From positions 1-64,000 of IMG/VR virus record IMGVR_UViG_3300042893_001103: a DNA stretch of 64,000 nucleotides. The stretch is one strand, 5' to 3'. The position numbers and the translations under genes are program-made. Source of the DNA: a virus. This document shows, piece by piece, positions 30,622-52,749 of the stretch. The notes under the pieces were generated by a model that ran no database searches, had not been told where the DNA came from, and worked only from the letters and a program-made list of their open reading frames with translations. The stretch's first letter is position 1, and each line of letters starts with the position of its first letter.

Positions 30622-32676
30622 ATGGCTTGGAATAACTTTAATAATAAATCACTGAACAATCAGTCCACAAAGAGCGTCGGTCCTGGCGCTCCAATTGCGC
30701 ACAACCCTGGCTATGCCGGAAAAGCGTATTCTGACTCGTGGGATATTGAGCGTGTTTATAAAGAAGGAATGCAGAAGGTAACTTGGGTTGCTCGTTGTAT
30801 TGACGCAATTGCTGGAAACCAAGCAAGACTCCCAGTGATTCTTAGGAAAGACAACTCTCCGCAGGGTGAGATTATTGTAGGTTCAAAAGCAAAAAATTCA
30901 GAGATATTAAAAATTCTGAACACAAAATCCAATATAGGTGAAAATTCATTTATATTTAGATACAGGCTTTCTTCTCAACTCTTAATGAGCACACGAGGGG
31001 TGTTTATTGAAAAAATTTATGGCAGGGACGGCGGAGTAATTGCTCTCAACCTTCTACCCCCACAAAGCACTTCACCAATTCCTGACCCAAGAAATTTTGT
31101 TGCTGGTTACGAAGTGAAGATGCCAAACGGCGGCACCATAATCATGAAACCAAAAGATGTTATTTGGATTCGCAAACCACATCCATTAGACCCATACCTA
31201 TCAATGACCCCATTAGAGGCTGCTGGTATTGCTGTTGAGATTGAAAACTTGGCAAAGGTTTACAATAGAAACTACCTTCTAAACGATGGTCGTCCAGGAG
31301 GTCTTCTTGTTCTTCGTGGAGAAATTGACGATGATGACAAAGAAGAACTAAAGAGCAGATTCAGGGGAAACATTGCTCGTGCTGGAGCAACGACCGTTAT
31401 CTCTTCTGACGATGGTGCTGACTTTGTTGATACATCCGCCAGTCCTCGTGACGCTGCATATATTCAAATGCGTCAAATTACTAAGGAAGAAATTCTTGCA
31501 TCTTTTGGTGTTCCGGAATCAGTTATCGGAAACGCTGCTGGCAGAACATTCTCTAACGCTGGTGAAGAAATCCGAGTCTTTTGGAACGAAACAATGCTTC
31601 CGCATTTAGAGCCAATTGCTCGTGCCTTAGATGAACTTGACGACCAGCATTACATTGACTTTGACGTCAGGAATGTTCCTGTTCTTATTCTTTACGAACA
31701 GGAAAGAAACAGATACCTCAAGGATGAACTTGGTCAAGGTCTAATCAGCACAAACGAATACAGAACTGGAACTGGCAGAAAAGAAGTTGAGAGCGACCTT
31801 GCCGATTCTCTTTTATGGAACCCAAACCTCACTCCGATTGCAAACACGAAGAAGAAGATGGAAGAGCCTGCTCAGGCCGGTGTAATGGGGGCTCCAGGAG
31901 TCCCTGGGGCACCAGGAATGCCCGGAATGCCAGGAATGCCAGGAATGCCTCCAGGTGCAGAGGGAATGCCTCCAGACCCAACAACCATGCAGGGTGCTAT
32001 GGAACTCGCAACACAGGGTGAACAGATGGCTCAAAACGCAGGAATGCCACCAGTTGACGGTGTCATGTCTCCAGAGCAGGGAGCCATGCCAACCGCGCCA
32101 GCGCAAGCATCCGCAAACTACTCGGCGCTTCAAAGCAAGAGCGAACAAGAGTGGCAAACAAAAGTTGACACAACATTTAACCGATGGACAGAGATTCTTG
32201 ATAGAAGCCTGGAAAGAGTATTTGAGAGACAACAGAGAGTTGTTCTTGAGAAAGCCTCTGGTATTAAATCTAGAAAACTATTGGCAACAGGAGCGCTTGA
32301 TGTGGAAAGCATTTTCAGCGCAGATGTATGGGCTAAACAGATGGACGAAGACATTAGGCCTGTTCTTAACGCAATTATCAATGATGCACAAACAACATAT
32401 TCCGAAAAAAATCTTGTCAAGATGCCGTTAAAAAAAGAAGATATCGTCGCTCATGTCAACTCGCAAATAACCAGAATCAAGTCAGTCAACGATGAAACTG
32501 CACAGGAAATCAACAATGCCGTGTTTGCAACACTTGGCGTACATGGCGAAGAAGACAAGGTAACTACTTTGCGCACTGCTCTTGTTGGAACATTTACCAA
32601 TCTCCTAGCAAAAAAGAAATCGCAAATTGCTGAAGACGAAACGCGTCGGGCGTGGTCAATGGGTTCAAACATCTAA
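30622..32676 (+). CDS. Portal protein
   Basis: A 684-residue portal of the HK97-like family: V-T-W-V-A-R-C-I-D-A-I-A-G-N early, then P-L-D-P-Y-L-S-M-T-P-L-E-A-A-G-I-A-V-E, the typical L-N-D-G-R-P-G-G-L-L-V-L segment, and L-A-S-F-G-V-P-E-S-V-I-G-N-A. Residues about 420-460 are a collagen-like Gly/Met/Pro tract (P-G-M-P-G-M-P-G-M-P). The C-terminal 180 residues are an addition, helical and charged (W-T-E-I-L-D-R-S-L-E-R-V-F-E-R), probably inside the capsid. It forms the 12-fold ring for DNA passage. Confidence 0.9.
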   Translation: MAWNNFNNKSLNNQSTKSVGPGAPIAHNPGYAGKAYSDSWDIERVYKEGMQKVTWVARCIDAIAGNQARLPVILRKDNSPQGEIIVGSKAKNSEILKILNTKSNIGENSFIFRYRLSSQLLMSTRGVFIEKIYGRDGGVIALNLLPPQSTSPIPDPRNFVAGYEVKMPNGGTIIMKPKDVIWIRKPHPLDPYLSMTPLEAAGIAVEIENLAKVYNRNYLLNDGRPGGLLVLRGEIDDDDKEELKSRFRGNIARAGATTVISSDDGADFVDTSASPRDAAYIQMRQITKEEILASFGVPESVIGNAAGRTFSNAGEEIRVFWNETMLPHLEPIARALDELDDQHYIDFDVRNVPVLILYEQERNRYLKDELGQGLISTNEYRTGTGRKEVESDLADSLLWNPNLTPIANTKKKMEEPAQAGVMGAPGVPGAPGMPGMPGMPGMPPGAEGMPPDPTTMQGAMELATQGEQMAQNAGMPPVDGVMSPEQGAMPTAPAQASANYSALQSKSEQEWQTKVDTTFNRWTEILDRSLERVFERQQRVVLEKASGIKSRKLLATGALDVESIFSADVWAKQMDEDIRPVLNAIINDAQTTYSEKNLVKMPLKKEDIVAHVNSQITRIKSVNDETAQEINNAVFATLGVHGEEDKVTTLRTALVGTFTNLLAKKKSQIAEDETRRAWSMGSNI

Positions 32677-32784: not shown

Positions 32785-35700
32785 ATGAGTCAGCAAGATA
32801 TTCAATTTAAAGCCATTCCAGGCCAATTCAACATTGACGAGGCCCAAGGCGTCGTTGAGTGTTTCGTCGCCGGCATCGGCAATAAGGACTCAGTAGGAGA
32901 CGTTCTAATTACTGGAGCATTCACCAAAAGCCTTACCCGCCGCAAGCCCCGTGTTGTTTGGGGACACAACTGGAACGACCCAATCGGTAAAGTTCTTGAG
33001 ATTTACGAAGTTGCCCCAGGGGACAGAAGACTTCCAACAAAGATGCTCAACGCCGGTATTGGTGGCTTGTACGCAAAGGTTCAATTCAATCTCAACTCAG
33101 AAAAAGGTCGGGAAGCCTTCGCCAACGTCGCGTTCTTCGGACAAGAACAAGAGTGGTCAATCGGATACAAAACGCTTGATTCAATTTTTGACCCGAACAT
33201 CCAAGCAAACATTCTAAAAGAAGTTGAACTTTACGAAGTATCGCCAGTACTACATGGTGCCAATCAATTGACTGGAACAATTTCTGTAAAGTCTGACGAA
33301 ACAGCCGAAAAGCACATGCCCGGAATGATGATGCCTCACCATACTGGAATGAACCAAGGTCCAAAAATTATCGTCGTTAGACAGGGTGATGATGACGACG
33401 ATGACGACGACAAACCAATTTTCTCAGAGGGTCTTGCTCGGGCGCTTGGTGACAATGAAAAAGAAAGATTGACACGCGAACTACAAAGCAGAAGCGGTTC
33501 CTCAATTCAACTAGTTTCCGCTACTGAAAGCACGGCAAAGTTCAGAAGAATGACCTCTGATGGTCGTTCTGTAATGTACAGAATCGGATATCACACTCCA
33601 GACAATTACGTTACCTTTATGTTTGGCAAGCCTGAACTGGCAGACGGACAACAACCGAGTGGTTCACGTACGGTTGTTCCGTCACAGATGCCTTCAATGC
33701 CAATGCAGGTCAAGCCTGGCGTGCCAACTGGCGCAACGAACTTCGTTGTTAGTCCTGAATACGTAATGCCTAAAGGTGAGGATTATGAAAAATCAGCCTT
33801 TGACGAAGAACTAGAAAATCTTGCTCAGATTCTTGACGAGACATTTGATGTAAAAGTTGGAAGAACGCTTAGTTCCCGCAATATGTCAAAACTAAAAACA
33901 GTCCTAGAGACACTTCAAGACATTGTTTCATCAGCGGAAAAAGATGTTGAATCAAAAAGTGATTACCTAATTCCTGTCAAACTGGAAAACGCGTTTGAGA
34001 CCAAGCAATTACTTGACCCAATTTTTGATTATCACAGGGTTGAATCTCACGTGACGGAAGATGGCATTGTCATCACAACCGAAGTAACACAAGAATTTAT
34101 AGAGGCTATTGGCGTAGCCGAAAAAGCCCTGGGGCGAACGCTAAGCGGGGGCCTGGGAAAATTAGGCCGCGCCGGTAGGGGCGCGGTAAACTTTGACCCA
34201 AAAGCATGGGACGGTGACGGAGACGGAATCGTACAAGAAGGAACGCCGTACTCACGTCCTGCAATTCCTGGAGTAAACGACCGTGCATCTGGTGGAAGAG
34301 TTGACACCAATGCTGCAACCCGCGCATGGCAAAATCAACGCAGAAGCGGAATGGCTTCCCGTATGGGTAGCGATGACAACGCAGATGAATACGACGAAGC
34401 AATGGGACCACCAATGCGACGCCCAAGCAGAGGTATGGCTGACGACCCAGTTGGTGACGCTGCTTCAGAAAACCTTGATAGAGACAGAAACGCTGGCGCT
34501 GTAAGAAGTGGACTTAGTTCAAGCACTGCAGGTGTTGTCAAAATTGATATTCCTCAAATTGACAATGCCATAGAAGAATTGGCAGCCAAAGACATAGGAA
34601 TGTCTCTTAAAAGATTCAGAGAACTAACAGACGAGGGTCGTCTTCCGGAACGTTATCAAAAAGCATTTTCGGACAGAGTTAAAGTTCTTAATGATATTTT
34701 TTCTAATTTAAGCAAAGAAAAACTAGACGAAAGTCCTGGAAAAGTGCTTTCAGAAATTAGAAAAAAATTAGTTGACACTCTTTCTTCTGACGACAAAGAA
34801 GGCGACGGTTTCATTAGCCAATTTAACGATAGAAGAGAAATACAAAACTTTATAGACGGAATTGAAGAAGTTCTTAACTTGGCTTTTGACGACTATGTTG
34901 ACAGGGCTAGAGAAAATGGAACAGGCGAAGAAGCGGACGACCTTCAGGCCGAGTTGTTGTCTGACTTCACACAATCTTTAAAAAAAATATCCGAAAAATC
35001 AAAGAACCTTTTTGATGCAAGAACAAAATCCTTCCGTGGAACAGAACCAGCAAAAGCCAAAAAGGAATCAGAATCAGAAAAAGAAAGATTATTTGACTTG
35101 CTCAAAAATCTTCTTGACATGGAAGAACTTGCTAGGTACCTAGACAGCACAGAGGGCGTTGTTCCTACGGATGCATTTATTGACAGAATCAGAAAGGGAA
35201 ACATAAGTGACGAAGACCTAGTACAACTAAATGGCTTTTTTGAAGATGCACTAGAAAATATTATTACCCTTGACCCAAGCCTTGACCCAGAAAAATTAGC
35301 AAAAGAATTTTCTGATGCAATTAGAGAAGGTGCAAAAAATGATGAATCAGGAGTAATTCAGCGTATTGCAAAAGAACTGGGTGACGATGGCGTCAGTGAG
35401 GACCTCGTTCAATACCTCAAGGATGGTAGAGAAGGTTCTCCATTCCTTCCGAATAGAGGTAAAAAGGAAAGAGAAATACTTCGCGGCTTTGCTTCCAGAA
35501 CCGGCGGTGGTGACTCAAAAGGTAAAAAATTTGATGTTAGGGATAGAAAACAAAGAGAAGACAAAATCGTTGAAATGTACAACGACGGTGAAACTGTTGG
35601 CGACATATCTCGCTTTTTAAGTTCCCAGCCTGGTTCAAATGGTATTTTTACGGAACTTGCTAACATTCGCAATGTTATAGATAAAAGAAGAAAAGCGGGA

Positions 35701-38700
35701 GACGTTCCTCTTCGTTCCGTCAATCCAAACAAGGAAAGACAAGCAACAACTAACCTACGTAATGAAATCATTAGACTTTATAACGATAATGATGAATTGT
35801 CGTATCGTGAAATAGCAAAACTTACTGGTACAACCCAAGCCAATGTTACAAACACCCTTTCTTCAATGCGTAGAGGAAATGATTCTCGCATTAGAAGCGG
35901 GGACAAAGTAAGAGGCTTTTCGTCTTCTACCGGTAGTGATGGAGAGAGTGGACTTGGTTCCTCATCTGACAAGCGCGAAATGGACATGACGCTTGCTGAA
36001 TATGCAGAACTAAATGAAGTTCTTAAAAAATATATGGATGAAAGCCAACTAGACGGCATCGGTGCCGACGAAGACATGCAAGTCATCCAGAACATTCTGG
36101 ACAAACTTGATGAGAGTTCAGCCGCAAACGACTCAATCCCTCTTACGGATAAAGAAATTGACGACTACATGGACACTCTCACAAGAATGAGAGACAATGG
36201 TCCGGTTGAAGATTCAGACGATAAAGAATCAATAGATAAATTGATTGACTCTTTGAAGAAAACAAAAGACTCAAAAGATGGAACCTACGAATCAGATGCT
36301 CTTCAGCAGGCTGGAACCAGGCTTTCCCGTCCTTCTCGTGATGGACAAGGTGGCGGTCGTGGAAGAACAGCAAAACGCCCTCGCGGCTTTAAGAGTTCCA
36401 ATGGAACAATAAACCCACACAAAAAACTTGATATAGAACTAGATGATTCTGAAATCGGCGAACTTCGTGACGAACTTCAGGGTTTTATGAAAATGACAGA
36501 CAACCCTGCTCCGCTCAGGGCCATTGCTGAAAAACTTGAAAAAGCCACAAACGGCAAATTTTCAGTTGATAAAGACGAATACGAAGCAGTCATAAAAGAA
36601 ATAGACAAAATGCGAACCGACAGAGGAGTGGTCACGTCTGATGTGGTTGGGGTTCTTGAGCAAGCAGCAGAATCTCAAAAAGGAAAATACTCCAGTATTG
36701 ATGTTCGTGGTGGACGAGGCTTTGAATCATCTACTGGTGGTGGCAAAAACAACGGAGCACCATCCGACATTCCTGAGACAATGCAAAAGCAACTCATCAT
36801 GTGGGGTAGACAGCAGGGCGGACTCAGACTTGTCCAAGAAGCAATTCAGAGGTTTGACAAAGACAAGGGAACAATGCCGGCGTCGTACTGGAAGAGATTG
36901 CGCACCATGTATGAAAACATGGGGCCAGGTTCCGCTAGTGGTGCTGCTCGCAGAACTGGACGTAGGGGCATATTCGGTCGCGGAAAAGATACAGACACTT
37001 CACCACGTGGTAGTGCTGGATTTATAATTGACGACAGACCAGTACCTAAAGGCTTGCTTGATAACACAATGTCAAACAACCCGATTGTTACAGATGACTT
37101 CGTAGACACCAATTCTGGCCCCATGGGTGGCTCACAGGGTGGCGGCGTATTCAAGGACCCCAAGACTGGTAAGGAATATTACATCAAGCCGCCAAAGTCA
37201 CAAACTCATGCAGAAAACGAATCACTAATGTCTCGTTTCTATGAAAGATTAGGTATTCCTGCTGGAAAAGTAAAAGTAGGAACCTACAAAGGTCGTCCAA
37301 AAATTGTTAGCGAAATGGTTCCAGGGGCAAAACAGGTTGACCATGAATCCGAAATAAAGAACTCAGCATGGAAGAAGGCAGTTCAAGACACTTTTGTGGC
37401 TAATGCATGGCTTGCAAACTGGGACGCTGTTTCAAACTCGGGAAACACCATTAAGGGCGGAGACGGTAAAGCGTACGTCATTGATGTTGGTGGTGCTGGT
37501 CTTTTCCGAGCAAGAGGAGAAGCAAAGGGCTCGGCGTTCGGTCCTATCGTCGGGGAAATGGAATCCTTGAGAGACCCAAATCAGTCGGGCGCTAGACGTG
37601 GTGTTGCATACTGGGGAGACATTCCTCCAGCAGAAATTGCTCGTCAGGTAAAAGCAATTGGAGCAGTATCAGATTCTGAAATCAAAGAAATGGTTGATGC
37701 TGTAATTTCCGACAAAGGTGAAGCAAAGAAACTTTCTGACACCCTTATTGCGCGACGTGACTATCTGGTACAAAACTGGTCCACTGGCAAAAATAGTGGA
37801 ACTGGCAGAAGAGGTCGTACTGGCTTTTCTTCGGAAACCGATAATTACGAAAGAAGAAACAAGAGGCCTGGCGTAGCGCCAGCAATGAGACCTGCCGACT
37901 TTGAAGTACGTCCTCGTGACGGCGAGCCTACGGGTGTTGGCAAGGGTGGAGTAATGGGAACAAAGCCCGACCCCAAGTTCACTGGAGACTCTTTTGACCA
38001 AGCCAAACCAGAAGAATGGGAAAAACTTACAATTGATGAAAAATGGGGTTGGATGCTTGGGGAAGGAAACCCTGAAAAGGGTGGAACGATGTCCCCTGCC
38101 GCCTATCAGGGTGCAATGAGGAAACTTGGCGAAGAAGAAGCCAGGGAAGAAACAAAGCGCATGACTCCAGAAGAACGAAGAAAATCCCGTTCAGAATCAA
38201 GACAAAGCGCCATGGATGAACGTTCTGACAACGAGAAAGAAAGACTCACTTCCGAAAGAGAAGAGCGTCAAAAAGAAGCACAAGAATCATCTAAGCGAGT
38301 TAAGGAAGAAGCAACTGCGGAGCAAGCGAAAGCCAAGAGACAGGCGCGTCTTGATGCTTTCAATGAATGGATTGATGACTCAATTCGTGAACTTTCAGGA
38401 ATGGAATACGACGAAACAGACATCAATCCTGATTCTGAAGACATCTGGGACACTGTTTCCACAATCCTTGGCGTTGAAGACATCACTCCAAAGTCGCTAA
38501 AAGAAGCAATTGACGAACTTTCATCATATATTGACATTACTTCAGGAGAAAATGCTTACGAAAAGAAGAGTGTCGCTCGTGCTAACGCACTATTGAAGAA
38601 ACTCTTAAAGATGCAATCAGAGTATTCGGAAGACAAGTGGTTTAACGACAGAGAGGGTGGAGTGTCTGGATTCCAGTCTTCAACTGGCGACAAACCTCGC

Positions 38701-39309
38701 CCTCCAAGAGACGGTAGACCGGCACGTCCTGGAACACCAGAAACGCCTCAATCAAATGCCAAACGCGAAGGGGAAATTAAAAAACTATCTACGCTGATTG
38801 AGCAGGTTGTTGCAGAACTTGATGAAAAACGTCAAAACCCTTCACCAAAAAAGGGAAGAATGGGATTCTCCTCATCAACCGGCAAAACGATGATTACTGA
38901 CGAAGCAACCTTTTTTAAGGACATTGAGAATTCTCTTGCAAAAGAGATTAGAGCCGCGCAAAAGGCTAGAAACACTAAAGCAGCATCAGGATTAACAAAA
39001 CTTCAAGAGATTATAAAAAGAAGTGAAGCCTCAAAAACAGGCGACAGAAGAACAAACGTCGGAAGTATCTACATGACGATGGATGAAGTTGACTTAATTC
39101 TTGACGGTCTTCAATTTGCCCTTGACCAACAGGTACAGGCTGGTGGAGATAAAAGAATTGGCTGGTACTCAAGACTAATTGAAAAAGTTGCCGGCGCAGC
39201 CATGTCTACATTTATTGATAAAAGTACATCAGAAATTGGTTCAACAAGAAGAACAGTCACAAACAAAGACGGCGTGAAGAAAAAAATCAATATTGTCCCA
39301 GAAGCATAA
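32785..39309 (+). CDS. Prohead protease fused to a giant multidomain polyprotein
   Basis: A 2174-residue protein. Residues 1-180 match the U35 prohead protease: V-V-W-G-H-N-W with H61, Q-E-W-S-I-G-Y with S125, and E-L-Y-E-V-S-P-V. These normally are 150-250 residues; here about 2000 follow. They include an acidic D-rich stretch near 206, an excalibur-like loop at 470-485 (D476, D478, D480, E485), helical regions, two HTH-like modules (about 920-972 and 991-1032, with Y-R-E-I-A-K-L-T-G-T-T-Q-A-N-V) and a kinase-like domain at about 1443-1667 (N-W-D...I-D-V-G-G-A-G). A G-F-x-S-S-T-G-like motif recurs at 576, 901, 1044, 1201, 1312, 1680, 1962 and 2027. The motifs may be processing sites; the modules resemble 'polyvalent' injected proteins. 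Confidence 0.85.
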   Translation: MSQQDIQFKAIPGQFNIDEAQGVVECFVAGIGNKDSVGDVLITGAFTKSLTRRKPRVVWGHNWNDPIGKVLEIYEVAPGDRRLPTKMLNAGIGGLYAKVQFNLNSEKGREAFANVAFFGQEQEWSIGYKTLDSIFDPNIQANILKEVELYEVSPVLHGANQLTGTISVKSDETAEKHMPGMMMPHHTGMNQGPKIIVVRQGDDDDDDDDKPIFSEGLARALGDNEKERLTRELQSRSGSSIQLVSATESTAKFRRMTSDGRSVMYRIGYHTPDNYVTFMFGKPELADGQQPSGSRTVVPSQMPSMPMQVKPGVPTGATNFVVSPEYVMPKGEDYEKSAFDEELENLAQILDETFDVKVGRTLSSRNMSKLKTVLETLQDIVSSAEKDVESKSDYLIPVKLENAFETKQLLDPIFDYHRVESHVTEDGIVITTEVTQEFIEAIGVAEKALGRTLSGGLGKLGRAGRGAVNFDPKAWDGDGDGIVQEGTPYSRPAIPGVNDRASGGRVDTNAATRAWQNQRRSGMASRMGSDDNADEYDEAMGPPMRRPSRGMADDPVGDAASENLDRDRNAGAVRSGLSSSTAGVVKIDIPQIDNAIEELAAKDIGMSLKRFRELTDEGRLPERYQKAFSDRVKVLNDIFSNLSKEKLDESPGKVLSEIRKKLVDTLSSDDKEGDGFISQFNDRREIQNFIDGIEEVLNLAFDDYVDRARENGTGEEADDLQAELLSDFTQSLKKISEKSKNLFDARTKSFRGTEPAKAKKESESEKERLFDLLKNLLDMEELARYLDSTEGVVPTDAFIDRIRKGNISDEDLVQLNGFFEDALENIITLDPSLDPEKLAKEFSDAIREGAKNDESGVIQRIAKELGDDGVSEDLVQYLKDGREGSPFLPNRGKKEREILRGFASRTGGGDSKGKKFDVRDRKQREDKIVEMYNDGETVGDISRFLSSQPGSNGIFTELANIRNVIDKRRKAGDVPLRSVNPNKERQATTNLRNEIIRLYNDNDELSYREIAKLTGTTQANVTNTLSSMRRGNDSRIRSGDKVRGFSSSTGSDGESGLGSSSDKREMDMTLAEYAELNEVLKKYMDESQLDGIGADEDMQVIQNILDKLDESSAANDSIPLTDKEIDDYMDTLTRMRDNGPVEDSDDKESIDKLIDSLKKTKDSKDGTYESDALQQAGTRLSRPSRDGQGGGRGRTAKRPRGFKSSNGTINPHKKLDIELDDSEIGELRDELQGFMKMTDNPAPLRAIAEKLEKATNGKFSVDKDEYEAVIKEIDKMRTDRGVVTSDVVGVLEQAAESQKGKYSSIDVRGGRGFESSTGGGKNNGAPSDIPETMQKQLIMWGRQQGGLRLVQEAIQRFDKDKGTMPASYWKRLRTMYENMGPGSASGAARRTGRRGIFGRGKDTDTSPRGSAGFIIDDRPVPKGLLDNTMSNNPIVTDDFVDTNSGPMGGSQGGGVFKDPKTGKEYYIKPPKSQTHAENESLMSRFYERLGIPAGKVKVGTYKGRPKIVSEMVPGAKQVDHESEIKNSAWKKAVQDTFVANAWLANWDAVSNSGNTIKGGDGKAYVIDVGGAGLFRARGEAKGSAFGPIVGEMESLRDPNQSGARRGVAYWGDIPPAEIARQVKAIGAVSDSEIKEMVDAVISDKGEAKKLSDTLIARRDYLVQNWSTGKNSGTGRRGRTGFSSETDNYERRNKRPGVAPAMRPADFEVRPRDGEPTGVGKGGVMGTKPDPKFTGDSFDQAKPEEWEKLTIDEKWGWMLGEGNPEKGGTMSPAAYQGAMRKLGEEEAREETKRMTPEERRKSRSESRQSAMDERSDNEKERLTSEREERQKEAQESSKRVKEEATAEQAKAKRQARLDAFNEWIDDSIRELSGMEYDETDINPDSEDIWDTVSTILGVEDITPKSLKEAIDELSSYIDITSGENAYEKKSVARANALLKKLLKMQSEYSEDKWFNDREGGVSGFQSSTGDKPRPPRDGRPARPGTPETPQSNAKREGEIKKLSTLIEQVVAELDEKRQNPSPKKGRMGFSSSTGKTMITDEATFFKDIENSLAKEIRAAQKARNTKAASGLTKLQEIIKRSEASKTGDRRTNVGSIYMTMDEVDLILDGLQFALDQQVQAGGDKRIGWYSRLIEKVAGAAMSTFIDKSTSEIGSTRRTVTNKDGVKKKINIVPEA

Positions 39310-39378
39310 ATAGTATGCGTTCTCGCTCAGAGGCGCATGCTAAGTTATACTTTTATAAACTATTCATAATGTGATATT

Positions 39379-39390
39379 GACACTCGTGTC
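39379..39390. promoter_or_regulatory. Inverted repeat GACAC-TC-GTGTC with TTGACA
   Basis: A 5-bp inverted repeat with a two-base centre lies 29 bases before the ATG at 39419 and includes most of a perfect TTGACA (39377-39382). No good -10 follows within 15-19 bases other than TAAAAA at 39400, which would place the start over the AGGAG ribosome site. It could be an operator or chance. A weak ATGCG/CGCAT hairpin is at 39316-39339. Confidence 0.25.
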
Positions 39391-39418
39391 TTTACTCGCT
39401 AAAAAACAGGAGTTACCA

Positions 39419-40795
39419 ATGAGCGAAAAAGTTGAAGTCAGTGTTGATGCGGACGGCAATGTTCTTAAGTGTGCCAAGGGCGCAAATGTTGCCGACTGCG
39501 GGTTTACCCCAGGTGCAAAAGTGTGCGGTAAGTGCGGAGCAATGCCTATCCAGATGAAGATGGTTCCAGTCACCGATGATGACTATGAAGTCAAGGGTGG
39601 AGACAAATGGGACGATAGTGAAATGTTTGACGCTATGAAAAAGCGTCAAAAGGGCACGGGCATGGGAATGCCTGGCGAAGAAGATGATGACGAAGAGATG
39701 GATGACGAAGACGAGATGGCGTCAATGCCGTCATCCAAGAAGAAAATGTCTCTTGAAATTGAAGAAGACGACGAAGAAGAATACGACGAAGACGACGAAG
39801 AAGAAGACGACGAAGACGCCGAGATGAAAATGTACGACGGAGAAGTTGACCTAGAAGCAGCAAGAAAGAAACGTCTTGCCAACATGGGTGAAAAAGTCGC
39901 AGAACTTGGAAGAAACGCATACATGTGTGCTGTTGAAAGAAAAGTTTACCCAGGTGGTTCAGGCGTCTGTGACGATTGTCCTGGTGGATGCTTGCCAGAG
40001 CGCGGAATGCCAGGTCTTCTTTCTGTTGAAGGAATTGCCGAAGAAATGTTTAAGGGCAAGGTTCTTGACTCTGGATATTCTTCAGATGCAGACATGTTCG
40101 TGGTTGACATTCAATCAAAGAGCGGCCGTGCGGTTGAAGTCTTTATTGATGGTACAACTGCAGAAGTTCTCGGTTTCCACAAACTTGATGACAATGCCTT
40201 TGAGCAGAAGTCAGCACTTGATTCAATGATGGTAATTGACTTCCACGAAGCAGCAGAGATTGCAGTTAAGTCCATTCAGGGTGACGTTGTTGCTGTTGAG
40301 CCAGACATCTTTGAAGGCTTTGATGCATACGCAGTTGAAATTGAAGGAATTGACGGAAAGTCTTACGACGTATTCGTTTCACTTGACGGTGAAGTTCTTG
40401 GATACGACAAGTATGAGCCAGAAGAAGCAGAAGCCATTGAAGCAGAAGCCGCAGAGATTGCATTAAAGCGTGCATTCAATGAAGACATGCGCACACAAAT
40501 GGCAGAAGAAGGAAAAGCACTTCCAGACGGTTCCTTTCCTATTTCTAACGTAGAAGACCTCAAGAACGCAATCAGCGCATACGGTCGTGCAAAAGACAAA
40601 GAAGCAGCAAAGAATCACATTATGAAGCAAGCCAAGGCTATGGGTCAGGAAAAACTTATCCCCGCCAACTGGGTAACCGGTGGAGCAAAACTTGTTGAAG
40701 AAAAATCCGGAGAAGTTGACTCTGACCTTATGGCATCGCTTGTTGAGTTTGAACTCCTTGAGGCCGAGGTCAAAGACTCAGAACCAACAATCTAG
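39419..40795 (+). CDS. Acidic PepSY-like, Cys-motif protein of head cluster
   Basis: A 458-residue protein. The ATG at 39419 follows AGGAG by 6 bases; an upstream GTG at 39371 is unsupported. Residues about 12-45 have a zinc-ribbon-like set (C-A-K-G ... C-G ... V-C-G-K-C). A long Asp/Glu tract (E-E-D-D-E-E-E-Y-D-E-D) lies at about 100-150. Then comes a second Cys set (M-C-A-V-E-R ... V-C-D-D-C-P-G-G-C) and two PepSY-like repeats with F-I-D-G-T-T-A-E-V-L-G and V-S-L-D-G-E-V-L-G. A phage-typical L-P-D-G-S-F-P-I-S-N-V-E-D-L-x-N-A-I segment with a closing P-A-N-W is near 375-425. It could be a scaffold or packaged protein. Confidence 0.6.
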   Translation: MSEKVEVSVDADGNVLKCAKGANVADCGFTPGAKVCGKCGAMPIQMKMVPVTDDDYEVKGGDKWDDSEMFDAMKKRQKGTGMGMPGEEDDDEEMDDEDEMASMPSSKKKMSLEIEEDDEEEYDEDDEEEDDEDAEMKMYDGEVDLEAARKKRLANMGEKVAELGRNAYMCAVERKVYPGGSGVCDDCPGGCLPERGMPGLLSVEGIAEEMFKGKVLDSGYSSDADMFVVDIQSKSGRAVEVFIDGTTAEVLGFHKLDDNAFEQKSALDSMMVIDFHEAAEIAVKSIQGDVVAVEPDIFEGFDAYAVEIEGIDGKSYDVFVSLDGEVLGYDKYEPEEAEAIEAEAAEIALKRAFNEDMRTQMAEEGKALPDGSFPISNVEDLKNAISAYGRAKDKEAAKNHIMKQAKAMGQEKLIPANWVTGGAKLVEEKSGEVDSDLMASLVEFELLEAEVKDSEPTI

Positions 40796-40811
40796 AGAAA
40801 GCGTGGCCCGT

Positions 40812-43800
40812 ATGACGGGGGTGGACATTAATAAAATTCGCCATTACGCGCCTGGATTCAATAATAGAACAACGCGTCTTGATGCGGATATGTCTGCATT
40901 GCTTTTCAAGGCCGGAACAAGGATTATTTCATCATCGGAAAGATTAATAGCCGACGTCTCTATTAAGGCAGCAATGGGAGCGGGTGCTCCTGCCGAAGAT
41001 AAAAAAAGAGGACTTCAAAGCGCTGGAAAATCCAAGTACATAAACATCAATGGTCTTGTCTATGACCCAGAAGCCAAAAAACAAGAGGGCCAATTCTTTA
41101 AGCCGTGGGTTACGGAAAGAGAAAGAATTAACGCAATGCGCTCAAACGACCCAGTTCCCAACTGGGGATGGGTTGACAGGAATCCGGAGAATCAAAATAG
41201 ACTCCAAGAGCCAAAAAACGCAAAAGGCAAAGTAACAAGGTATCCAGTAAACCCCAAAACTGGTGAACCAATGAAAAATTACGGAGTTGAACAAGAGTTT
41301 AAATCTCTTGGACCAACGCTTGCTGAAAGAAATCCTGGCGGAAAACTTCTTGCACGAACAGCAAAGTCTTTCGGTGTGGTAGTTGATGCTCTTGGAAAAT
41401 TTAGATGCCCTCCTGGGACGCCAGCAGCAAACAGATTTACTAACTTCAGAGGTGAAGGATGTTTTGACATTTCAGTAGCCCAGGTACGTAACTTGATTGG
41501 TTCTCTAACTCAATCAATGCAGGCACCACAGAGCGGGTCTCAAACAATATCCTCCCTTACTTCTGCAGGGGTAAGTATCGCCGAAATTAGAAAATCATTT
41601 AAAGAAAATGGAATTGCTGGCCTTGCCAGTCTTGCAAAGCGGGTTGGAATTGCTCATGTCGGTGATAAATGGAACGACATGTCTTACGTATCGCAAATAG
41701 CGGTAAGACTTAGAGAAGTTTCTGGCTTGACAATGGGTGCGCAGTCAAGAATGGAAAAAATTGCTCAGAAAAAAGCAGACACAATTAATTTTCTTGCTGA
41801 ATATTATGGAATAACAGAACCCAATGAATATAAAAAAATTGCACAAATAATTGAAAAAATGTCTGCTGACCCAGACTCTCCATTGGACCCAAATCAATTT
41901 AAACTTTTGTTTAGAGGTGGCTCTTTAGAAAGCCACGAAGAATGGGCCGTAGAAGCAATTATTAAAACACACATTGGGGCAATTGGCAGCAAACTTGGTA
42001 TTGATGCAACTGATGCACTGGAAGCATACGAAGAAGCCAAGCGTAACGGAGAAATAACTCCGCTTACCCGATTTGTTGATGCCGCTTTAGATAGAGAAAG
42101 AGATTTTAGGCTTGGAGCATTTGAAGACATGCTTGTTGCTGCGTACGAGCAACCACACACATTCACATTGCCCGGAGGCAAGAAAAGAATTTATACTGCT
42201 GGACCAATTCCAGACGGACCAGACGGAGAGAAATACAACGTTCCCCGATGGGACAGATACGACCTAAACGGATACGCGGAGCCAGAATTTATTTTAATTA
42301 ACTCTGGACCAGCAATTCTAGGATTTAGGGGAGGAGTTCCACCAAGTGGATATATGGACCTGTACGAAGCAACCGGAGGAGACATTGACGACCAGTGGAG
42401 AGCGGTTGCTTCAGAGATGGACAAAGACGAGCGTCTAAGGGCATATTCAGCACTGTGGAGTGTTGACCTGGCGGCAACAGAAGGAAGAGGTTGGAGAGAT
42501 TTTGGTGCACAAACATCTGCTCACGAAAGAGCCCACTGGGGTCAGATGGATGCAATTTTTCAATACCATGCAGAAACTAGTCCTGGTGTAGCCATGAAGG
42601 ATTTAAACAACCGTGAATTGATGGAATTAACTAACGAGTTCTTAACGAAAGCAACACCAGAGATATTACGAGATGTTTTTGGTGCCGATATTGAAGACTT
42701 GATTGATAAGCGTTTTGATGCACTTGCCGGTGCATACAGTCAAAAAGCACAGCAAGAGGCGCTTGAAGAACTAACAGGAGGAGGCAGCAGGGAAGACTTT
42801 AACTATTCTAGAAGCATTGCGCTACTAGAGACGCTCTCGGAATTAAAAGCAAACAAATCTGTCGGCCTCATAGGTGACGACCCCGAGTTGGATGCAATTC
42901 TTGACAAGATGACACCACTTCCTCCAATGTCTCCTGGTTCAATATCTCCATCTGGTGGAATCGTGCCATCACCCCCCGGTGGTTCACCAAGGCCAGTTAG
43001 GCCATCGCTGCCAAGTTCGGCACCATCGCTCCCTGCGAACGCCGGGAAGGTCGTTACCGTGATTCCAGGAAGAGGAAGCGGTCGTGGCGGTCGTGGCGCA
43101 CGAGGACCTGTTGACCCGTTTGAGCGAGACAGATATGGAAAAGTTCCGACAATGATTAAAGAGGGTCGTTTTACTCTTGAAGACATTGATGAGTTCTTGT
43201 ACGGAGAAGACGGCAAGGGTGGACTAAGGCAAACGCTTGCACAAATTGCAAACATGAAAACTAAAAAGAACGGCTATTCAGAGCCTGCTTTAGTTGAAAG
43301 AAAACGGCTACTTAATGAACTTATTAACACGATGGGTATTTCGTTTCCTGAACTTGAAGCAATAGCGCTTAAAGCAAAGAGAGGAGAAGCATTAACCCCA
43401 GAAGAAAAATCAAAACTTGTTAATGCTGTTTCACATTTAAGAAATGGTGCAAATGAGTTTAAGGCCAAATCTGTTGAAGCAAGAAAAAAATTTGAAGACT
43501 ATCGGAGTGTTGATGTATCAAGGGCAACTGGTGACGGTTCTGAATATGACGACAAAGATACAAACAGCCTGAATCTTGAAAGAATACAAGCCGAAATTGA
43601 AATGTACGAATCACTCTTTCAAAGAGTTGGGCGCGGCATAGCGCCAGCAGTGCATGACATTCTTACAATTAGTGAAAATGGTCCATATCCTCCACGTCTA
43701 ACCGCAAGAAAACCAGGTCCTCAACCTCTGGTTGGAATAGAAATTGACGGCGCTGACGGGATTGCAATTAAACAAGCGTCAAAACTTAATCCTCAAGAAC

Positions 43801-46475
43801 TTGCGGCACTATCTGAAGCGGTCACAAATCCACCAAGAATAATTTCATCTTTAAGTCCGCAAAACGTTTCTGAACTAACTTCAACTCTGGAAGATATTGA
43901 AAATGTTAGACAAGTTTTTGAACGTAATAACTTGACACCACCAACTACAGTTGCTGACGATGAACTTAAAAATGCAGCGCCTGTTATGTCGGGATTGGAT
44001 AAATCAATTATCCCAGAAGACATGGTCGTTGAACTTGAGATTGATATGCCGGAGGATACCTCACCTGGCTCAATACATGAAATTCCTCAAATATCATCTG
44101 CTCAATTAATAACAGATTCAAACACGGAAGAAGTTAACATTCCAAGTTCAGGTTTTTCTTCAACAACTGGCGCTAGAACTAAGGCCGGAATTGCTGGAAG
44201 ACTTATCGCAAGCCAGAGAACTAGAAAGTTGCTTGAAAAAGCAGGAATTGATGCAGAAAGAACAGACGTTGTTCAGTTAATGAGCGAAGTTGCTATTGGT
44301 TTTTCTATTGGAGGGCCGTACGGTGCCCTCTTGCCAATAGCACGACGCGGAAGTCGTGACGCTGCAGAGCAAGCACTAAGAATGATGGTTGAACGCGGAT
44401 GGATTGAGCAAGACATTGCTGACAAAATTGAAAAATACGGTCTTGACAGGATTGCTACAGAAGGTTTACCAGACGAAATACTTAATTTAGCAGAATCAGC
44501 CAAAGGTAAACTTTTGACAGACGATTCAAAACGTAAGGCTCTTGAATTTGGTTCAGTCCTACAGGATAGAAGTATTGAATTATCCGACGTCGCTCGTGAG
44601 AAAGCATCAGCAATGGCTGCCTCCGGAAAAGAAAAGGCTCGTGAACTTACTGGTGCTGGAAGAGAAACGGCAAGAAGATTAAGAAATCGTCTTGGTGGTG
44701 GTTCCGAAGAAATAGACGCAACTGACGCATTCTCGCTCCCTCCGTCTGGTAGTCCTTTTGATATACCAGCACCAGATATTGACCCGTTTAAGTCCGCATT
44801 TGTTGACATTGAATTCAAGCAACTCGGAACTTCCCTTATGGAACAAAAGCAGGGAAAGAAAACTAAAGTTAGAATTGCTGTACCTGCTGGCTCAAAAGGA
44901 AAAATTGAAGCAGGAAAAACAAAAGCAAGCAATATGATTCTTCCCCCAGGAAAAGTAAAATTTACTGGAGTTGGCGAAGACGGAGTTCCTGAAGCAGAGA
45001 TTTTTGACCAAATGTCCGCTGAACAATACATGAAAAACGTTGAAAAGATATCTCTAGAAGTTTCCTCATCTTCCAATAAACCAAGTATCAAAAAATCAGC
45101 AAAATTGAGAGCAGACACTGCTAAAAAAATGCGCCAAGAAATGGTTGCCAAGTCAGGAACACCCCAGTCAATGTCTGGTATTTCAAAAATTGTATTTGAT
45201 AAATCAAACTCAATAATGGAAAGAGGCGAAGCGGCTGGAATTAATTTCTTTACTTTAGAGAAGATAAAAAATAACGATACGGATATTGACGTATCGGAGT
45301 ATGTGCGCCTCTACCAAGAAAAACTCATATCAACAATTAATAATTACAGCAAATCTTTACCAACCCGTCTTTTTGATGACGGAATAAGTGCGGATACCAA
45401 AAAGTTTATTTATGGAACTCCTATTAAAGAAGTGGTAAAAGCAGTTAACGAAGTAGCCGTGTTGATTCATAATGACATAGACAGAAGAGCACGTGTTTCA
45501 ATGTCTAAATCGTCATTAGAACAATTTGTTGGTTCTGGAAAAATTGCAAACATTGATGTTGATAGTGAATCTTTAAAGATTTTAAAAACCAAACGAGACG
45601 CAATGCTTGGAAATGCCCCCGGGATTAAAGAATTTTCATTTACGCCTATTGAGTTGATACACGGAATACTTATTGAAAAAGTTGAAGAAAATCTTTACAA
45701 AAACGGAACACACGTTGGCTCTGAAGAATTTACAGATTACGGAAGAGGCATAGAATTGGTGCTTCGCGCAGAAAATTCTCCAAGAATTGGATACGGAAGA
45801 AAAGAGTCATACAAAAATGGTGGAATTTTTGTACAGATAAACGAAGAAGACGAACAAATTATTCAAGCAGCAATTTTTGGACAAATGTTTATGTCAACAA
45901 GTGGTGCAGAAGAATATCTAGCGGAGATTATTGAAGCAAGCCTTTCAAAAGACTATTCAAAACTTATAAAGAAAAACGACGAAGATATATTTGAGGCGTT
46001 TATAGTTGGTGAAATATCACTCAACGATGTTGAGCACATTAAAATACCTTTGTCAATATTCAACATCAGAAAGAAAAGAGTCTCCAAGAGCAGTATGATT
46101 GGTGGGGCAGACTCAATAAATATGATATTTATGAACAGAAGCGTTCCAAAAGAAAAAATCAAAGACTTCTTTGACGGTGAAGGAACCATAGGTGGAGGGT
46201 ATACGCCTAAGCATCTGTCTTATTTAAACGAACTAGAGGCTGCAGAAGAATTCAAAGAAAATCTAATATCTCTTGGCATTGATGAAGTGTTATTTACGAA
46301 TAAAGATGGAATTGACATCATGAGCGAAGATACATGGAGGACCCCTCCTCCAACAAAGAAAAAGGGCAAGGACGCACTAAGAGAGATAGCAAGACGAGAA
46401 GTTATGTCAATTATTGACAAAATTGCTCCTGCACCTAAAAAAGCAGAACCCAAAAAGGAAACTGTAAAGAAATGA
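40812..46475 (+). CDS. Giant virion-associated protein with HExxH metallopeptidase signature
   Basis: A 1887-residue protein. The ATG at 40812 is preferred (GAGAAAG about 10 bases before; a GTG at 40803 is too close to it, and the longer frame would overlap the previous gene). A C-P-P-G...R-F-T-N...C-F-D-I Cys motif lies near residues 198-220. Residues about 565-620 contain S-A-H-E-R-A-H-W-G-Q with H571, E572 and H575, a zincin pattern. A Pro-rich linker is near 700-770; a G-F-S-S-T-T-G motif is at 1114. Residues about 1560-1860 form a further large domain I do not recognise. It likely enters or is packaged with DNA. The C-terminus is Lys-rich. Confidence 0.65.
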   Translation: MTGVDINKIRHYAPGFNNRTTRLDADMSALLFKAGTRIISSSERLIADVSIKAAMGAGAPAEDKKRGLQSAGKSKYININGLVYDPEAKKQEGQFFKPWVTERERINAMRSNDPVPNWGWVDRNPENQNRLQEPKNAKGKVTRYPVNPKTGEPMKNYGVEQEFKSLGPTLAERNPGGKLLARTAKSFGVVVDALGKFRCPPGTPAANRFTNFRGEGCFDISVAQVRNLIGSLTQSMQAPQSGSQTISSLTSAGVSIAEIRKSFKENGIAGLASLAKRVGIAHVGDKWNDMSYVSQIAVRLREVSGLTMGAQSRMEKIAQKKADTINFLAEYYGITEPNEYKKIAQIIEKMSADPDSPLDPNQFKLLFRGGSLESHEEWAVEAIIKTHIGAIGSKLGIDATDALEAYEEAKRNGEITPLTRFVDAALDRERDFRLGAFEDMLVAAYEQPHTFTLPGGKKRIYTAGPIPDGPDGEKYNVPRWDRYDLNGYAEPEFILINSGPAILGFRGGVPPSGYMDLYEATGGDIDDQWRAVASEMDKDERLRAYSALWSVDLAATEGRGWRDFGAQTSAHERAHWGQMDAIFQYHAETSPGVAMKDLNNRELMELTNEFLTKATPEILRDVFGADIEDLIDKRFDALAGAYSQKAQQEALEELTGGGSREDFNYSRSIALLETLSELKANKSVGLIGDDPELDAILDKMTPLPPMSPGSISPSGGIVPSPPGGSPRPVRPSLPSSAPSLPANAGKVVTVIPGRGSGRGGRGARGPVDPFERDRYGKVPTMIKEGRFTLEDIDEFLYGEDGKGGLRQTLAQIANMKTKKNGYSEPALVERKRLLNELINTMGISFPELEAIALKAKRGEALTPEEKSKLVNAVSHLRNGANEFKAKSVEARKKFEDYRSVDVSRATGDGSEYDDKDTNSLNLERIQAEIEMYESLFQRVGRGIAPAVHDILTISENGPYPPRLTARKPGPQPLVGIEIDGADGIAIKQASKLNPQELAALSEAVTNPPRIISSLSPQNVSELTSTLEDIENVRQVFERNNLTPPTTVADDELKNAAPVMSGLDKSIIPEDMVVELEIDMPEDTSPGSIHEIPQISSAQLITDSNTEEVNIPSSGFSSTTGARTKAGIAGRLIASQRTRKLLEKAGIDAERTDVVQLMSEVAIGFSIGGPYGALLPIARRGSRDAAEQALRMMVERGWIEQDIADKIEKYGLDRIATEGLPDEILNLAESAKGKLLTDDSKRKALEFGSVLQDRSIELSDVAREKASAMAASGKEKARELTGAGRETARRLRNRLGGGSEEIDATDAFSLPPSGSPFDIPAPDIDPFKSAFVDIEFKQLGTSLMEQKQGKKTKVRIAVPAGSKGKIEAGKTKASNMILPPGKVKFTGVGEDGVPEAEIFDQMSAEQYMKNVEKISLEVSSSSNKPSIKKSAKLRADTAKKMRQEMVAKSGTPQSMSGISKIVFDKSNSIMERGEAAGINFFTLEKIKNNDTDIDVSEYVRLYQEKLISTINNYSKSLPTRLFDDGISADTKKFIYGTPIKEVVKAVNEVAVLIHNDIDRRARVSMSKSSLEQFVGSGKIANIDVDSESLKILKTKRDAMLGNAPGIKEFSFTPIELIHGILIEKVEENLYKNGTHVGSEEFTDYGRGIELVLRAENSPRIGYGRKESYKNGGIFVQINEEDEQIIQAAIFGQMFMSTSGAEEYLAEIIEASLSKDYSKLIKKNDEDIFEAFIVGEISLNDVEHIKIPLSIFNIRKKRVSKSSMIGGADSINMIFMNRSVPKEKIKDFFDGEGTIGGGYTPKHLSYLNELEAAEEFKENLISLGIDEVLFTNKDGIDIMSEDTWRTPPPTKKKGKDALREIARREVMSIIDKIAPAPKKAEPKKETVKK

Positions 46476-52400: not shown

Positions 52401-52749
52401 TTCAAGGAACGTTGCAGACGGCGACCCAGTATGGGATGGCGAAGTTGGACAAATGTGGTCTTCGTTGATGAGTGCTTACGAATCATCCAGTGGACCAGAA
52501 AAAACACAACTATGGAATGTAATTAATTTTATGTCTACTCAACTTACAAGACAAACAAGATGGGAAAACTATGTTCCTTTAATTTTAGGCTACGATGGCA
52601 TTGATACCGGAGACAACACAGTAAGAACTGGTGGAACGGCCGCTGGAAAACAAGTCCTTATTTTCAATAGACAGGGCCTTGCTGTTCTTGACACGCCAAT
52701 AAGCATTAAGGGAATTAATGACATTCTTAAGGAAGCAGATAAAAAATGA
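49462..52749 (+). CDS. Large head-cluster protein with excalibur-like loop
   Basis: A 1095-residue protein starting in an ATGA overlap. The first 240 residues form a globular part, followed by an Arg-rich G-R-R-A-A-R-S segment and F-D-P-K-A-W-D-G-D-G-D-G-V-V-Q-E at F250, the same excalibur-like loop as in the polyprotein at 32785 and the zeta-like protein at 53078. Long Ser/Lys-rich linkers follow, with G-L-A-S-R-T and G-L-A-S-R-S motifs at about 351 and 464 related to the recurring G-F-x-S-S-T-G. Residues about 850-1090 make a further domain (D-D-P-R-Y-W-G-K-P near 912). No enzyme is recognised. Confidence 0.6.
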   Translation: MKKVSTLFDALRNEKFAIAVQDDYGVKYYGSEGQAREWADWANSFNTKTLDTNNLPAGIIQGPYKNVSEHSLKSLLNAFGNNVTEINNSFTDSKAYSYKSSMKMDNGARVPAVMDTPIGHFTKSQYASAVNYKGLVIRTQIKEGSFLFEAKVNNYAFNFENWMYNSTPSKAEIKSLRNRIDTNVGRSSERRLGMKLKAALVERDGRYRIGYAQTLETKSLEDSLEVKGIGERIGGGARIGRRAARSMAMFDPKAWDGDGDGVVQEGTPFERPAIPGVNDKTTGGVVDADAAKKAWKESQKTPGSSTPSRESSPRRRVSNAAGSADRQVFTTRTPAAAGRKIPDSKPISRSGLASRTQADIDKEVSKQVTDTAKEVLTKKSTSTDLRSLISGLGPDGATELSRDQQDRINDIIDAFDNDEYENNEDFISEIANVLQKKIPVNQKPKQTGMRSRVGKAQMDRQVQGLASRSGRSKTKSKLKATPGRDAVDEKDGSLWASLTPEQQDVVKKNTQAAYDGLQTYIKKDKYLSTWWNDFLSLNRKKKATDADGKPWSDQSRISGEAFTSFEVALNGALSGENSDIASAESGLAAMRATLSDAEIKKAENRIAAQKKRVERLQKVLDDLRTYDQMDKSDDWSLLEHLHPEQRKKSFGLGLSKSEADMTVSPFADGKLPKGMKVGEPSTIFEEVGGMKRAAPRLIGEKGDAKLEDLANRILRPNPQRAARRAVRKQKKAGRSGFRIEQEDKPDITSKIKKRIKKAKRAVKRTFGKQRNESKILNGIRREQTVRIFERDPDGKIVIGKETIQLLDEVVNKARQNNGRGEFKGQADANMLLGFLWENNGFNRQPARLSEDEAMALIDAGWHPIKRGVSAEEYADEYLTESRRRITGSNGEMEGPGEYWSNAVSTNWDDPRYWGKPTESNGLFGFLSPDYRVASRVDRERMASEYQKFAQAFENVISVMPKGEAEKMEPADFMRELRTALSRNVADGDPVWDGEVGQMWSSLMSAYESSSGPEKTQLWNVINFMSTQLTRQTRWENYVPLILGYDGIDTGDNTVRTGGTAAGKQVLIFNRQGLAVLDTPISIKGINDILKEADKK

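What the first reader, a model, noticed from the sequence alone, without database searches (positions are those of the whole stretch)
32785..39309. Prohead protease fused to a 2000-residue polyprotein with eight recurring G-F-x-S-S-T-G motifs
The first 180 residues are a U35 protease with H61 and S125. G-F/L-x-S-S/R-T-G-like motifs then recur at 576, 901, 1044, 1201, 1312, 1680, 1962 and 2027, most preceded by Arg/Lys/Gly. They fall between, not within, recognisable modules. A related motif is at residue 1114 of the 1887-aa protein and 604 of the zeta-like protein, and G-L-A-S-R variants occur in the 1095-aa protein. One explanation is that the motifs are cleavage sites for the fused protease, so one gene yields several small head-packaged proteins. 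An alternative is that they are docking tags or flexible linkers copied by recombination. I know of no described system with this layout.
Basis: partly seen in the sequence, partly recalled or inferred. Interest (0 to 1): 0.88.

Follow-up and report, generated by a model that had tools for sequence, protein, structure and literature searches.

The report
Phage polyproteins with lineage-specific processing motifs
A family of aquatic phages encodes giant multi-enzyme proteins, one fused to the capsid protease, in which nearly every domain is separated by a short motif whose spelling is uniform within each phage but differs between phages; this looks like a set of protease cut sites for releasing proteins carried in the virus head, which would be a polyprotein strategy in a DNA phage.

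Summary
The 2174-aa ORF starts with an S78/U35 prohead-protease domain (H61 and S125 invariant in 31 relatives) and carries ten G-[FLM]-x-S motifs (two more than listed). GF.S.T occurs 6 times against 0.03 expected.

Most large relatives examined have their own repeated version: RGMASR, GLAS, GFASRG, GLRSS, GLSSG, RLSSG, GMRSR, STRS, ISGRM. At orthologous junctions the motif's hydrophobic residue matches between phages only 28% of the time, but copies within one phage match 75% of the time. Synonymous codons are random, so the copies are not recent DNA duplicates. Homology breakpoints cluster at motifs. In AlphaFold models nine of ten sites lie in disordered linkers and the tenth at a linker edge. 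The motifs also occur in separate ORFs, including a second polyprotein just outside the window with three HExxH domains and an ART-like domain. They almost always follow an FDPxA-DGDxDG module.

Best reading: processing sites read by a trans-acting phage protease, most likely the S78 prohead protease, releasing head-packaged enzymes. Cleavage itself is not shown. The expected matching site in the major capsid protein was tested and not found, so a docking tag remains possible.

The parts
32785..39309 (+). 2174-aa polyprotein ORF (P0001): N-terminal S78 protease, DGDGDG module, modules separated by G-[FLM]-x-S motifs
32851..33291 (+). Peptidase_S78 (prohead protease) domain, residues 23-169; H61 at 32965-32967, S125 at 33157-33159
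   Evidence: Pfam 2.5e-11; H61 and S125 invariant in 31 relatives
34192..34269 (+). FDPKAW-DGDGDG-IVQEGTPYSRP module (residues about 470-495), recurring N-terminal to the first motif in nearly every long ORF that has it
34510..34530 (+). motif, residue 576 (R-SGLSSSTA)
35485..35505 (+). motif, residue 901 (RGFASRTG)
35497..35889 (+). helix-turn-helix-like module between motifs 901 and 1044
   Evidence: Pfam Sigma70_r4_2 2.4e-4 and several HTH families, all below their curated cut-offs
35914..35934 (+). motif, residue 1044 (RGFSSSTG)
36385..36405 (+). motif, residue 1201 (RGFKSSNG), at the edge of a linker
36718..36738 (+). motif, residue 1312 (RGFESSTG)
37078..37800 (+). CtkA/HipA/PI4K-fold kinase-like module (residues about 1432-1672)
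   Evidence: Foldseek E 3.1e-5 to H. pylori CtkA; VIA Z 16.1, 3.6 A over 227 residues; sits in other ORFs in other phages
37822..37842 (+). motif, residue 1680 (TGFSSETD)
38668..38688 (+). motif, residue 1962 (SGFQSSTG)
38863..38883 (+). motif, residue 2027 (MGFSSSTG)
38884..39228 (+). C-terminal domain, residues 2034-2148, found in 40 protease ORFs of relatives
30622..32676 (+). portal protein, immediately upstream
   Evidence: Pfam Phage_portal 3.8e-48
40680..46475 (+). 1931-aa ORF (1887 aa from a later start) with HERAH at 615 and one motif at residue 1158 (44151-44171, SGFSSTTG)
49462..52749 (+). 1095-aa ORF: DGDGDG module then motifs at 351 (SGLASRTQ) and 464 (GLASRSG)
53078..55453 (+). 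791-aa ORF: DUF3721 repeats, DGDEDG module, motif 319 (RGLASSG), zeta-toxin-like domain, motif 604 (KGFESSS)
55593..56954 (+). HK97-fold major capsid protein with N-terminal extension; linker AAAAGYSLKGLGASYSIGD; no clear copy of the motif
   Evidence: PHROG 1.4e-62; HK97 gp5 2.4e-52

Best explanation
The G-[FLM]-x-S motifs are proteolytic processing sites. The phage makes several giant proteins, each with an N-terminal part and an FDPxA-DGDxDG module that I infer recruits it to the prohead, followed by folded cargo modules joined by disordered linkers. Each linker carries one (sometimes two) copies of a short sequence recognised by one trans-acting phage protease, most likely the S78 prohead protease that opens the polyprotein itself. 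During head maturation the linkers are cut, freeing kinase-like, HTH-like, metallopeptidase-like, ART-like and zeta-like modules inside the capsid for ejection with the DNA. Because one enzyme reads all sites in a genome, sites stay uniform within a phage and change together between phages. Shown here: motif, positions, linker context, module mobility, within-phage uniformity, amino-acid-level selection, N-to-C polarity. Inferred: that cutting happens, that the S78 protease cuts, that cargo is packaged and ejected.
For: (1) Phage-specific repeated motifs recovered de novo in most large relatives examined: GF.S.T, GLAS, RGM.SR, GFASRG (13-15 copies), GLSSG (up to 22), GLRSS, GMRSR, STRS, ISGRM. 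(2) Hydrophobic residue identical in 75% of within-phage pairs, 28% at orthologous junctions between phages, 28% for any between-phage pair; permutation maximum 47%. (3) Synonymous third positions at motif copies match 0.333 vs 0.334 expected, flanks 28-30% identical: selection on protein, not DNA copying. (4) 109 of 337 homology breakpoints lie within 15 aa of a motif vs 35.6 +/- 6.1, 0 of 5000; modules change order or ORF with motifs at the joints. (5) Nine of ten sites in low-pLDDT linkers between folded modules. (6) In 29 ORFs with the DGDxDG module, 165 motifs lie after it and 2 before it. (7) Second polyproteins of two phages (36% identical) have the same three-HExxH-then-ART order with a motif at the joints, GF/GL in one and GL in the other. 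(8) The protease is present with conserved catalytic residues.
Against: The major capsid protein, the expected main substrate, has no clear copy: own-phage motif profiles do not score its linker better than other classes' profiles (class permutation p = 0.68; best window in the linker in 4 of 31 phages). Motif divergence correlates with protease and with capsid divergence about equally (partial Spearman 0.53 and 0.46), so it does not single out the protease. Some copies are tandem (e.g. GLSSGEGLSSG), which fits docking as well. At least one long linker in the 2174-aa protein (about 1380-1430) lacks a canonical copy. No relative has published virion proteomics that I could find. Breakpoints and low pLDDT both mark any flexible linker, so points 4 and 5 show position, not cleavage.
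Confidence: 0.62

Rival explanations
1. The motifs are docking (cargo-loading) tags that bind capsid, scaffold or core proteins inside the prohead; the polyprotein stays intact and each copy adds avidity. Within-phage uniformity then reflects co-evolution with one binding surface.
For: Short motif in disordered linkers, several copies per protein, tandem doublets in some linkers, motif divergence also correlates with capsid divergence after controlling for protease (partial 0.46), no motif copy in the capsid protein itself.
Against: Placement at nearly every module joint and the near absence of copies before the DGDxDG module (2 vs 165) is not needed for docking; small ORFs have the motif between N-terminal module and cargo.
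Confidence: 0.2
2. The motifs are cleavage sites, but for another protease, for example the zincin-like metallopeptidase domains encoded in the second polyprotein, as proposed for polyvalent proteins by Iyer et al. 2017 (PMC5512222).
For: Three HExxH domains in the second polyprotein just beyond the window and one HERAH in the 1931-aa ORF; capsid linker does not match the motif.
Against: The HExxH domains themselves sit between motifs like cargo. I did not test whether every phage with motifs encodes one.
Confidence: 0.1
3. The repeats are flexible linkers spread by duplication or recombination and have no recognition function.
For: Gly/Ser-rich sequence in linkers; breakpoints of homology near them.
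Against: Copies are not related at DNA level: random synonymous codons (including TCN and AGY serines) and unrelated flanks; different phages have different fixed motifs with conserved hydrophobic and serine positions.
Confidence: 0.04
4. The motifs are modification sites (R-x-x-S-like) for the encoded CtkA/HipA-fold kinases or another modifying enzyme.
For: Serine invariant in most classes, upstream Arg frequent, kinase-like module present.
Against: The kinase module is itself mobile between ORFs and found by sequence in only some relatives; the ISGRM class has a different layout.
Confidence: 0.03

Closest known systems
Polyvalent proteins of phages and conjugative elements (Iyer et al. 2017, PMC5512222)
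   Same: Many effector-like domains (zincins, ARTs, kinases and others) in one polypeptide, predicted to enter the host with DNA; embedded peptidase; the authors themselves draw the analogy to RNA-virus polyproteins.
   Different: They report assemblin-like peptidases always at C-termini; here the S78 protease is N-terminal. A recurring lineage-specific motif at domain joints did not appear in the passages I read.
Prohead proteolysis of head and ejection proteins in T4- and phiKZ-type phages (SPN3US gp245: PMC10052503)
   Same: One prohead protease reading one short motif in many head proteins, some ejected with DNA; N-terminal propeptides removed, some cut several times.
   Different: There the products are single proteins with propeptides, the capsid protein is itself a substrate, and the protease is a separate protein. 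Here multi-domain polyproteins appear to be segmented, the protease is fused, and the motif differs from phage to phage.
HK97/D3 capsid maturation protease and major capsid protein
   Same: Homologous protease family and capsid with N-terminal extension. The HK97 chain reads FNK-SLGSD around its known cut (sequence; cut at 103/104 from general knowledge), which resembles K/R-[GS]-[LFM]-x-S.
   Different: No multi-site polyprotein in HK97 or D3; the D3 sequence near its N-arm start does not obviously fit the motif.
Phage P1 DarA/DarB/DdrB antirestriction proteins
   Same: Large head-packaged proteins, a capsid localisation signal and proteolytic processing (PMC9024508; PMC5512222).
   Different: Separate genes, no repeated cut motif known to me, different protease.
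Gordonia phages of the GMA6/Gray/DalanDe group
   Same: Closest protease among deposited phages (about 40-45% identity); genes annotated as ART-like, HTH and RNA ligase lie between portal and protease in Gray.
   Different: Such genes are separate and ordinary in size, and no repeated motif was found in the large ORFs tested.

Membership tests
S78/U35 prohead protease | sequence match to Peptidase_S78 | tested here: met
   E 2.5e-11, 44.4 bits vs cut-off 21
S78/U35 prohead protease | conserved catalytic His and Ser | tested here: met
   H61 and S125 invariant in 31 relatives
S78/U35 prohead protease | gene between portal and major capsid protein | tested here: met
   portal 30622-32676, capsid 55593-56954; about 16 kb of other ORFs lie between polyprotein and capsid gene
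S78/U35 prohead protease | cuts the capsid protein and other head proteins | not testable with these tools
   needs virion proteomics or an enzyme assay
Polyvalent proteins | several unrelated effector-type domains in one phage polypeptide | tested here: met
   kinase fold and HTH-like modules in the 2174-aa ORF; three HExxH domains and an ART-like motif in the second polyprotein; NUDIX 1.6e-12 in its relative
Polyvalent proteins | delivered into the host with DNA | not testable with these tools
   no virion or ejection data
Polyvalent proteins | assemblin-like peptidase at the C-terminus, when present | tested here: not met
   S78 domain is N-terminal
Motif-guided prohead proteolysis (T4/phiKZ type) | one short motif shared by many head-region proteins of a phage | tested here: met
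   record-wide scans of four phages
Motif-guided prohead proteolysis (T4/phiKZ type) | motif present at the cut site of the major capsid protein | tested here: not met
   no class-level match, p = 0.68; best window in linker in 4 of 31
Motif-guided prohead proteolysis (T4/phiKZ type) | N-terminal region separated from mature protein by a motif | tested here: inconclusive
   in 28 of 29 ORFs with the DGDxDG module a motif follows it; 2 motifs in all lie before it; removal not shown
Docking or cargo-loading tags of HK97-fold shells | short motif in disordered cargo segment | tested here: met
Docking or cargo-loading tags of HK97-fold shells | binds the shell interior | not testable with these tools
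   needs binding assay or structure

The most novel reading that the evidence does not exclude
A widespread lineage of DNA phages uses true polyproteins: capsid-targeted, protease-containing precursors cut at many phage-specific sites that co-evolve with the protease, releasing a cassette of injected enzymes, analogous to retroviral or picornaviral polyprotein processing. Cargo modules are exchangeable because every joint carries the same cut site.
Probability: 0.5. Interest if true: 0.9.

Novelty: new variant of a known kind. Interest (0 to 1): 0.76.

Why it matters
If correct, each phage genome writes out its own protease specificity many times over (about 5 to 25 copies), so substrate preferences of hundreds of capsid proteases could be read from sequence and tested. 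It would explain how phages of this group load many enzymes into the head from a few genes, provide motif-delimited boundaries for finding new injected effectors, and supply a set of orthogonal viral proteases. Even under the docking alternative, it gives a readable cargo-loading code for HK97-fold capsids.

Tried and rejected
Capsid covariation: profiles built from each phage's motif were scanned over its own capsid protein; no class-level signal (one search failed on a zero frequency and was rerun). By eye QLSSRE beside LSSG phages and KGLGSS beside GL.S phages look suggestive, but the test does not support it. Partial Mantel tests of motif against protease and capsid distances do not separate the two. 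The single copy in the 1573-aa tail-region protein (residue 42) is not kept at the same place in two relatives, so I treat it as incidental. Gordonia and Brevibacterium relatives and the lake phage DSL-LC01 have no repeated motif in the large ORFs tested. Some relatives with the same protease also gave no motif or only low-complexity patterns (G045, G047, G051, G057, G069, G072, G078). Foldseek on residues 490-1330 gave nothing significant, so those helical modules stay unidentified. A first version of the homogeneity test had an index error and was replaced. tblastn of the second polyprotein finds nothing in deposited phages. Literature searches found no description of this layout, but most subscription papers are not held.
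Full report
What is there. The window is part of a 72,189-base virus record. A tail-sheath gene (PHROG 6.9e-43), portal and HK97-fold capsid genes indicate a contractile-tailed phage. Between portal and capsid lie several very large ORFs. The first, 32785-39309, is a single open frame of 2174 residues. Residues 23-169 match Peptidase_S78, and H61 and S125 are invariant in 31 relatives. The rest has almost no family matches.

The motif. The pattern GF.S.T is seen 6 times against 0.027 expected, and the top motif score (26.5) exceeds the maximum of 40 shuffles within 50-residue blocks (15.8). Further copies sit in the 1931-, 1095- and 791-aa ORFs. A DNA-level pattern for GFxS.TG hits the record seven times and its reversed control never.

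Relatives. I searched the polyproteins of 80 protease loci, and later 31 further 20-kb stretches, for any enriched short pattern without supplying the motif. Most large ones have one dominant repeated motif, and it differs by phage: GF.S.T, GFAS, GLAS (9-10 copies), RGM.SR (11-13), GLRSS (12), GFASRG (13-15), GLSSG (up to 22), RLSSG, GMRSR, STRS, ISGRM. Seven phages with the protease gave no motif or only low-complexity patterns. Most classes share a form small-hydrophobic-x-S-(S/R/G). The protease need not be fused: in L044, L062 and L076 it is a short ORF of roughly 470-515 residues and the motif-bearing polyprotein is a separate gene.

Concerted change without DNA copying. Among nine polyproteins of the G-[FLM]-x-S type, the hydrophobic residue is the same in 75% of within-phage pairs but in 28% of pairs at orthologous junctions of different phages, equal to the 28% for arbitrary between-phage pairs; label shuffling reaches at most 47%. 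For instance it is M in 13 of 13 copies in L028, F in 8 of 8 in L011, and L in 9 of 10 in L022. In the window the copies are not DNA duplicates: third codon positions agree in 33.3% of same-residue comparisons against 33.4% expected from the gene's codon usage, serines use both codon families, and flanks are about 28-30% identical. Uniformity therefore has to be maintained by selection on the protein, which points to one trans-acting partner reading all copies (inference).

Position. Homology breakpoints between relatives' polyproteins fall within 15 residues of a motif 109 times in 337, against 35.6 +/- 6.1 for rotated motif positions (0 of 5000). Modules move with motifs at the joints: in L027 the kinase-like module and its neighbour are in swapped order, in L022 the 520-579 segment sits elsewhere between two motifs, and in L112 and L114 the kinase-like module ends another ORF. 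AlphaFold models of residues 490-1330 and 1300-2174, built with relatives only, put nine of ten sites in low-confidence linkers between folded modules and the tenth (1201) at a linker edge. Shallow alignments and linkers both lower pLDDT, so this shows context, not function. The linker near 1380-1430 lacks a canonical copy in the window, although relatives have one in about that place.

A common N-terminal module. FDPxA-DGDxDG-xxQ-GTPFxRP recurs in many long motif ORFs. In 29 such ORFs there are 2 motifs before it (11,219 residues) and 165 after it (45,381 residues), median 75 residues to the first. This holds for the protease polyprotein, the 1095-aa and the zeta-like ORFs, and for a second polyprotein at 67460-72187 of the record, beyond the window. 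That one, cut by the contig end, reads module - motif - HExxH domain - motif - HExxH domain - motif - HExxH domain - motif - ART-like - motif. Its 36%-identical counterpart in another phage keeps the same order and joints with GLAS instead of GF/GL, and adds a Nudix domain (1.6e-12) between motifs. The HExxH and ART labels rest on short sequence motifs read by eye and script, not on family matches.

Cargo. The module at about 1432-1672 has the CtkA/HipA/PI4K kinase fold (Foldseek E 3.1e-5, VIA Z 16.1 over 227 residues). The 901-1044 module has weak helix-turn-helix matches below curated cut-offs. The 791-aa ORF has a zeta-toxin-like domain (2.1e-8).

Mechanism. The best single account is proteolytic segmentation: module-tagged precursors enter the prohead, and a phage protease cuts at the motif, releasing cargo to be ejected with DNA. 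The S78 protease is the likeliest cutter, since it lies in the same polypeptide or head operon and its family acts on packaged head proteins (general knowledge). Weighing against this, the capsid protein, which the same protease should cut, lacks a copy of each phage's motif. Own-class profiles do no better than others on the capsid linker (p = 0.68) and the best window falls in the linker in only 4 of 31 phages. Motif divergence tracks protease and capsid about equally. The capsid site may be degenerate, the cutter may be another protease, or the motif may dock rather than be cut. I therefore put cleavage of some kind at about 0.7, with the S78 protease as the most likely cutter at about 0.6, and docking at about 0.2.

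Comparison. Polyvalent proteins (PMC5512222) supply the class of cargo and the idea of embedded peptidases, with assemblin-like peptidases reported only at C-termini. SPN3US and T4 (PMC10052503) supply the precedent of one prohead protease reading one motif in many packaged proteins. The combination of serial sites at nearly every joint, fusion to the protease, and lineage-specific motif spelling was not found in the literature available here. Closest deposited phages (Gordonia, about 40-45% protease identity) keep such genes separate and lack the motif in the large ORFs tested.

Noticed in passing
record G000 67460-72187 (L200 7460-12187), beyond the window: Second motif-bearing polyprotein with three HExxH metallopeptidase-like domains and an ART-like motif, cut by the contig end; no tblastn match in deposited phages.
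   Followed up: partly
window 34192-34269, about 50210-50290, about 53800-53880: FDPxA-DGDxDG-xxQ-GTPFxRP module, EF-hand-like in look, recurs in three window ORFs and in many long ORFs of relatives, near the start and before the first motif; a candidate head-targeting element.
   Followed up: partly
window 39371-40795: 474-aa very acidic ORF with a weak PepSY match (below cut-off) and what looks like an internal repeat, between the polyprotein and the 1931-aa ORF.
   Followed up: no
window 53078-55453 (residues 10-36 and a second copy): DUF3721 occurs twice near the start of the zeta-toxin-like protein (1.3e-11).
   Followed up: no
window 40680-46475 and 47459-49465: Cys-containing segment C-P-x-G-...-R-F-T-(N/D)-...-C recurs in two ORFs (RCPPGTPAANRFTN..GCF and RCPEGYQYGGRFTD..C).
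   Followed up: no
window 23161-24303 (-): Phosphoadenosine phosphosulfate reductase gene (PHROG 8.6e-74), an auxiliary metabolic gene.
   Followed up: no
window 17125-17144 (-), residue 42 of the 1573-aa tail-region protein: One exact GFASSTGGG copy outside the head genes; not kept at the same place in two relatives.
   Followed up: yes
[quoted passage not shown] it may be a second assembly or targeting domain.
   Followed up: partly
L157, L163, L128 and L135: Phages with clearly different repeated motifs (ISGRM and GP-x-G-x-M) in ORFs of up to about 3200 aa upstream of the capsid gene; they do not fit the small-hydrophobic-x-S form well.
   Followed up: partly
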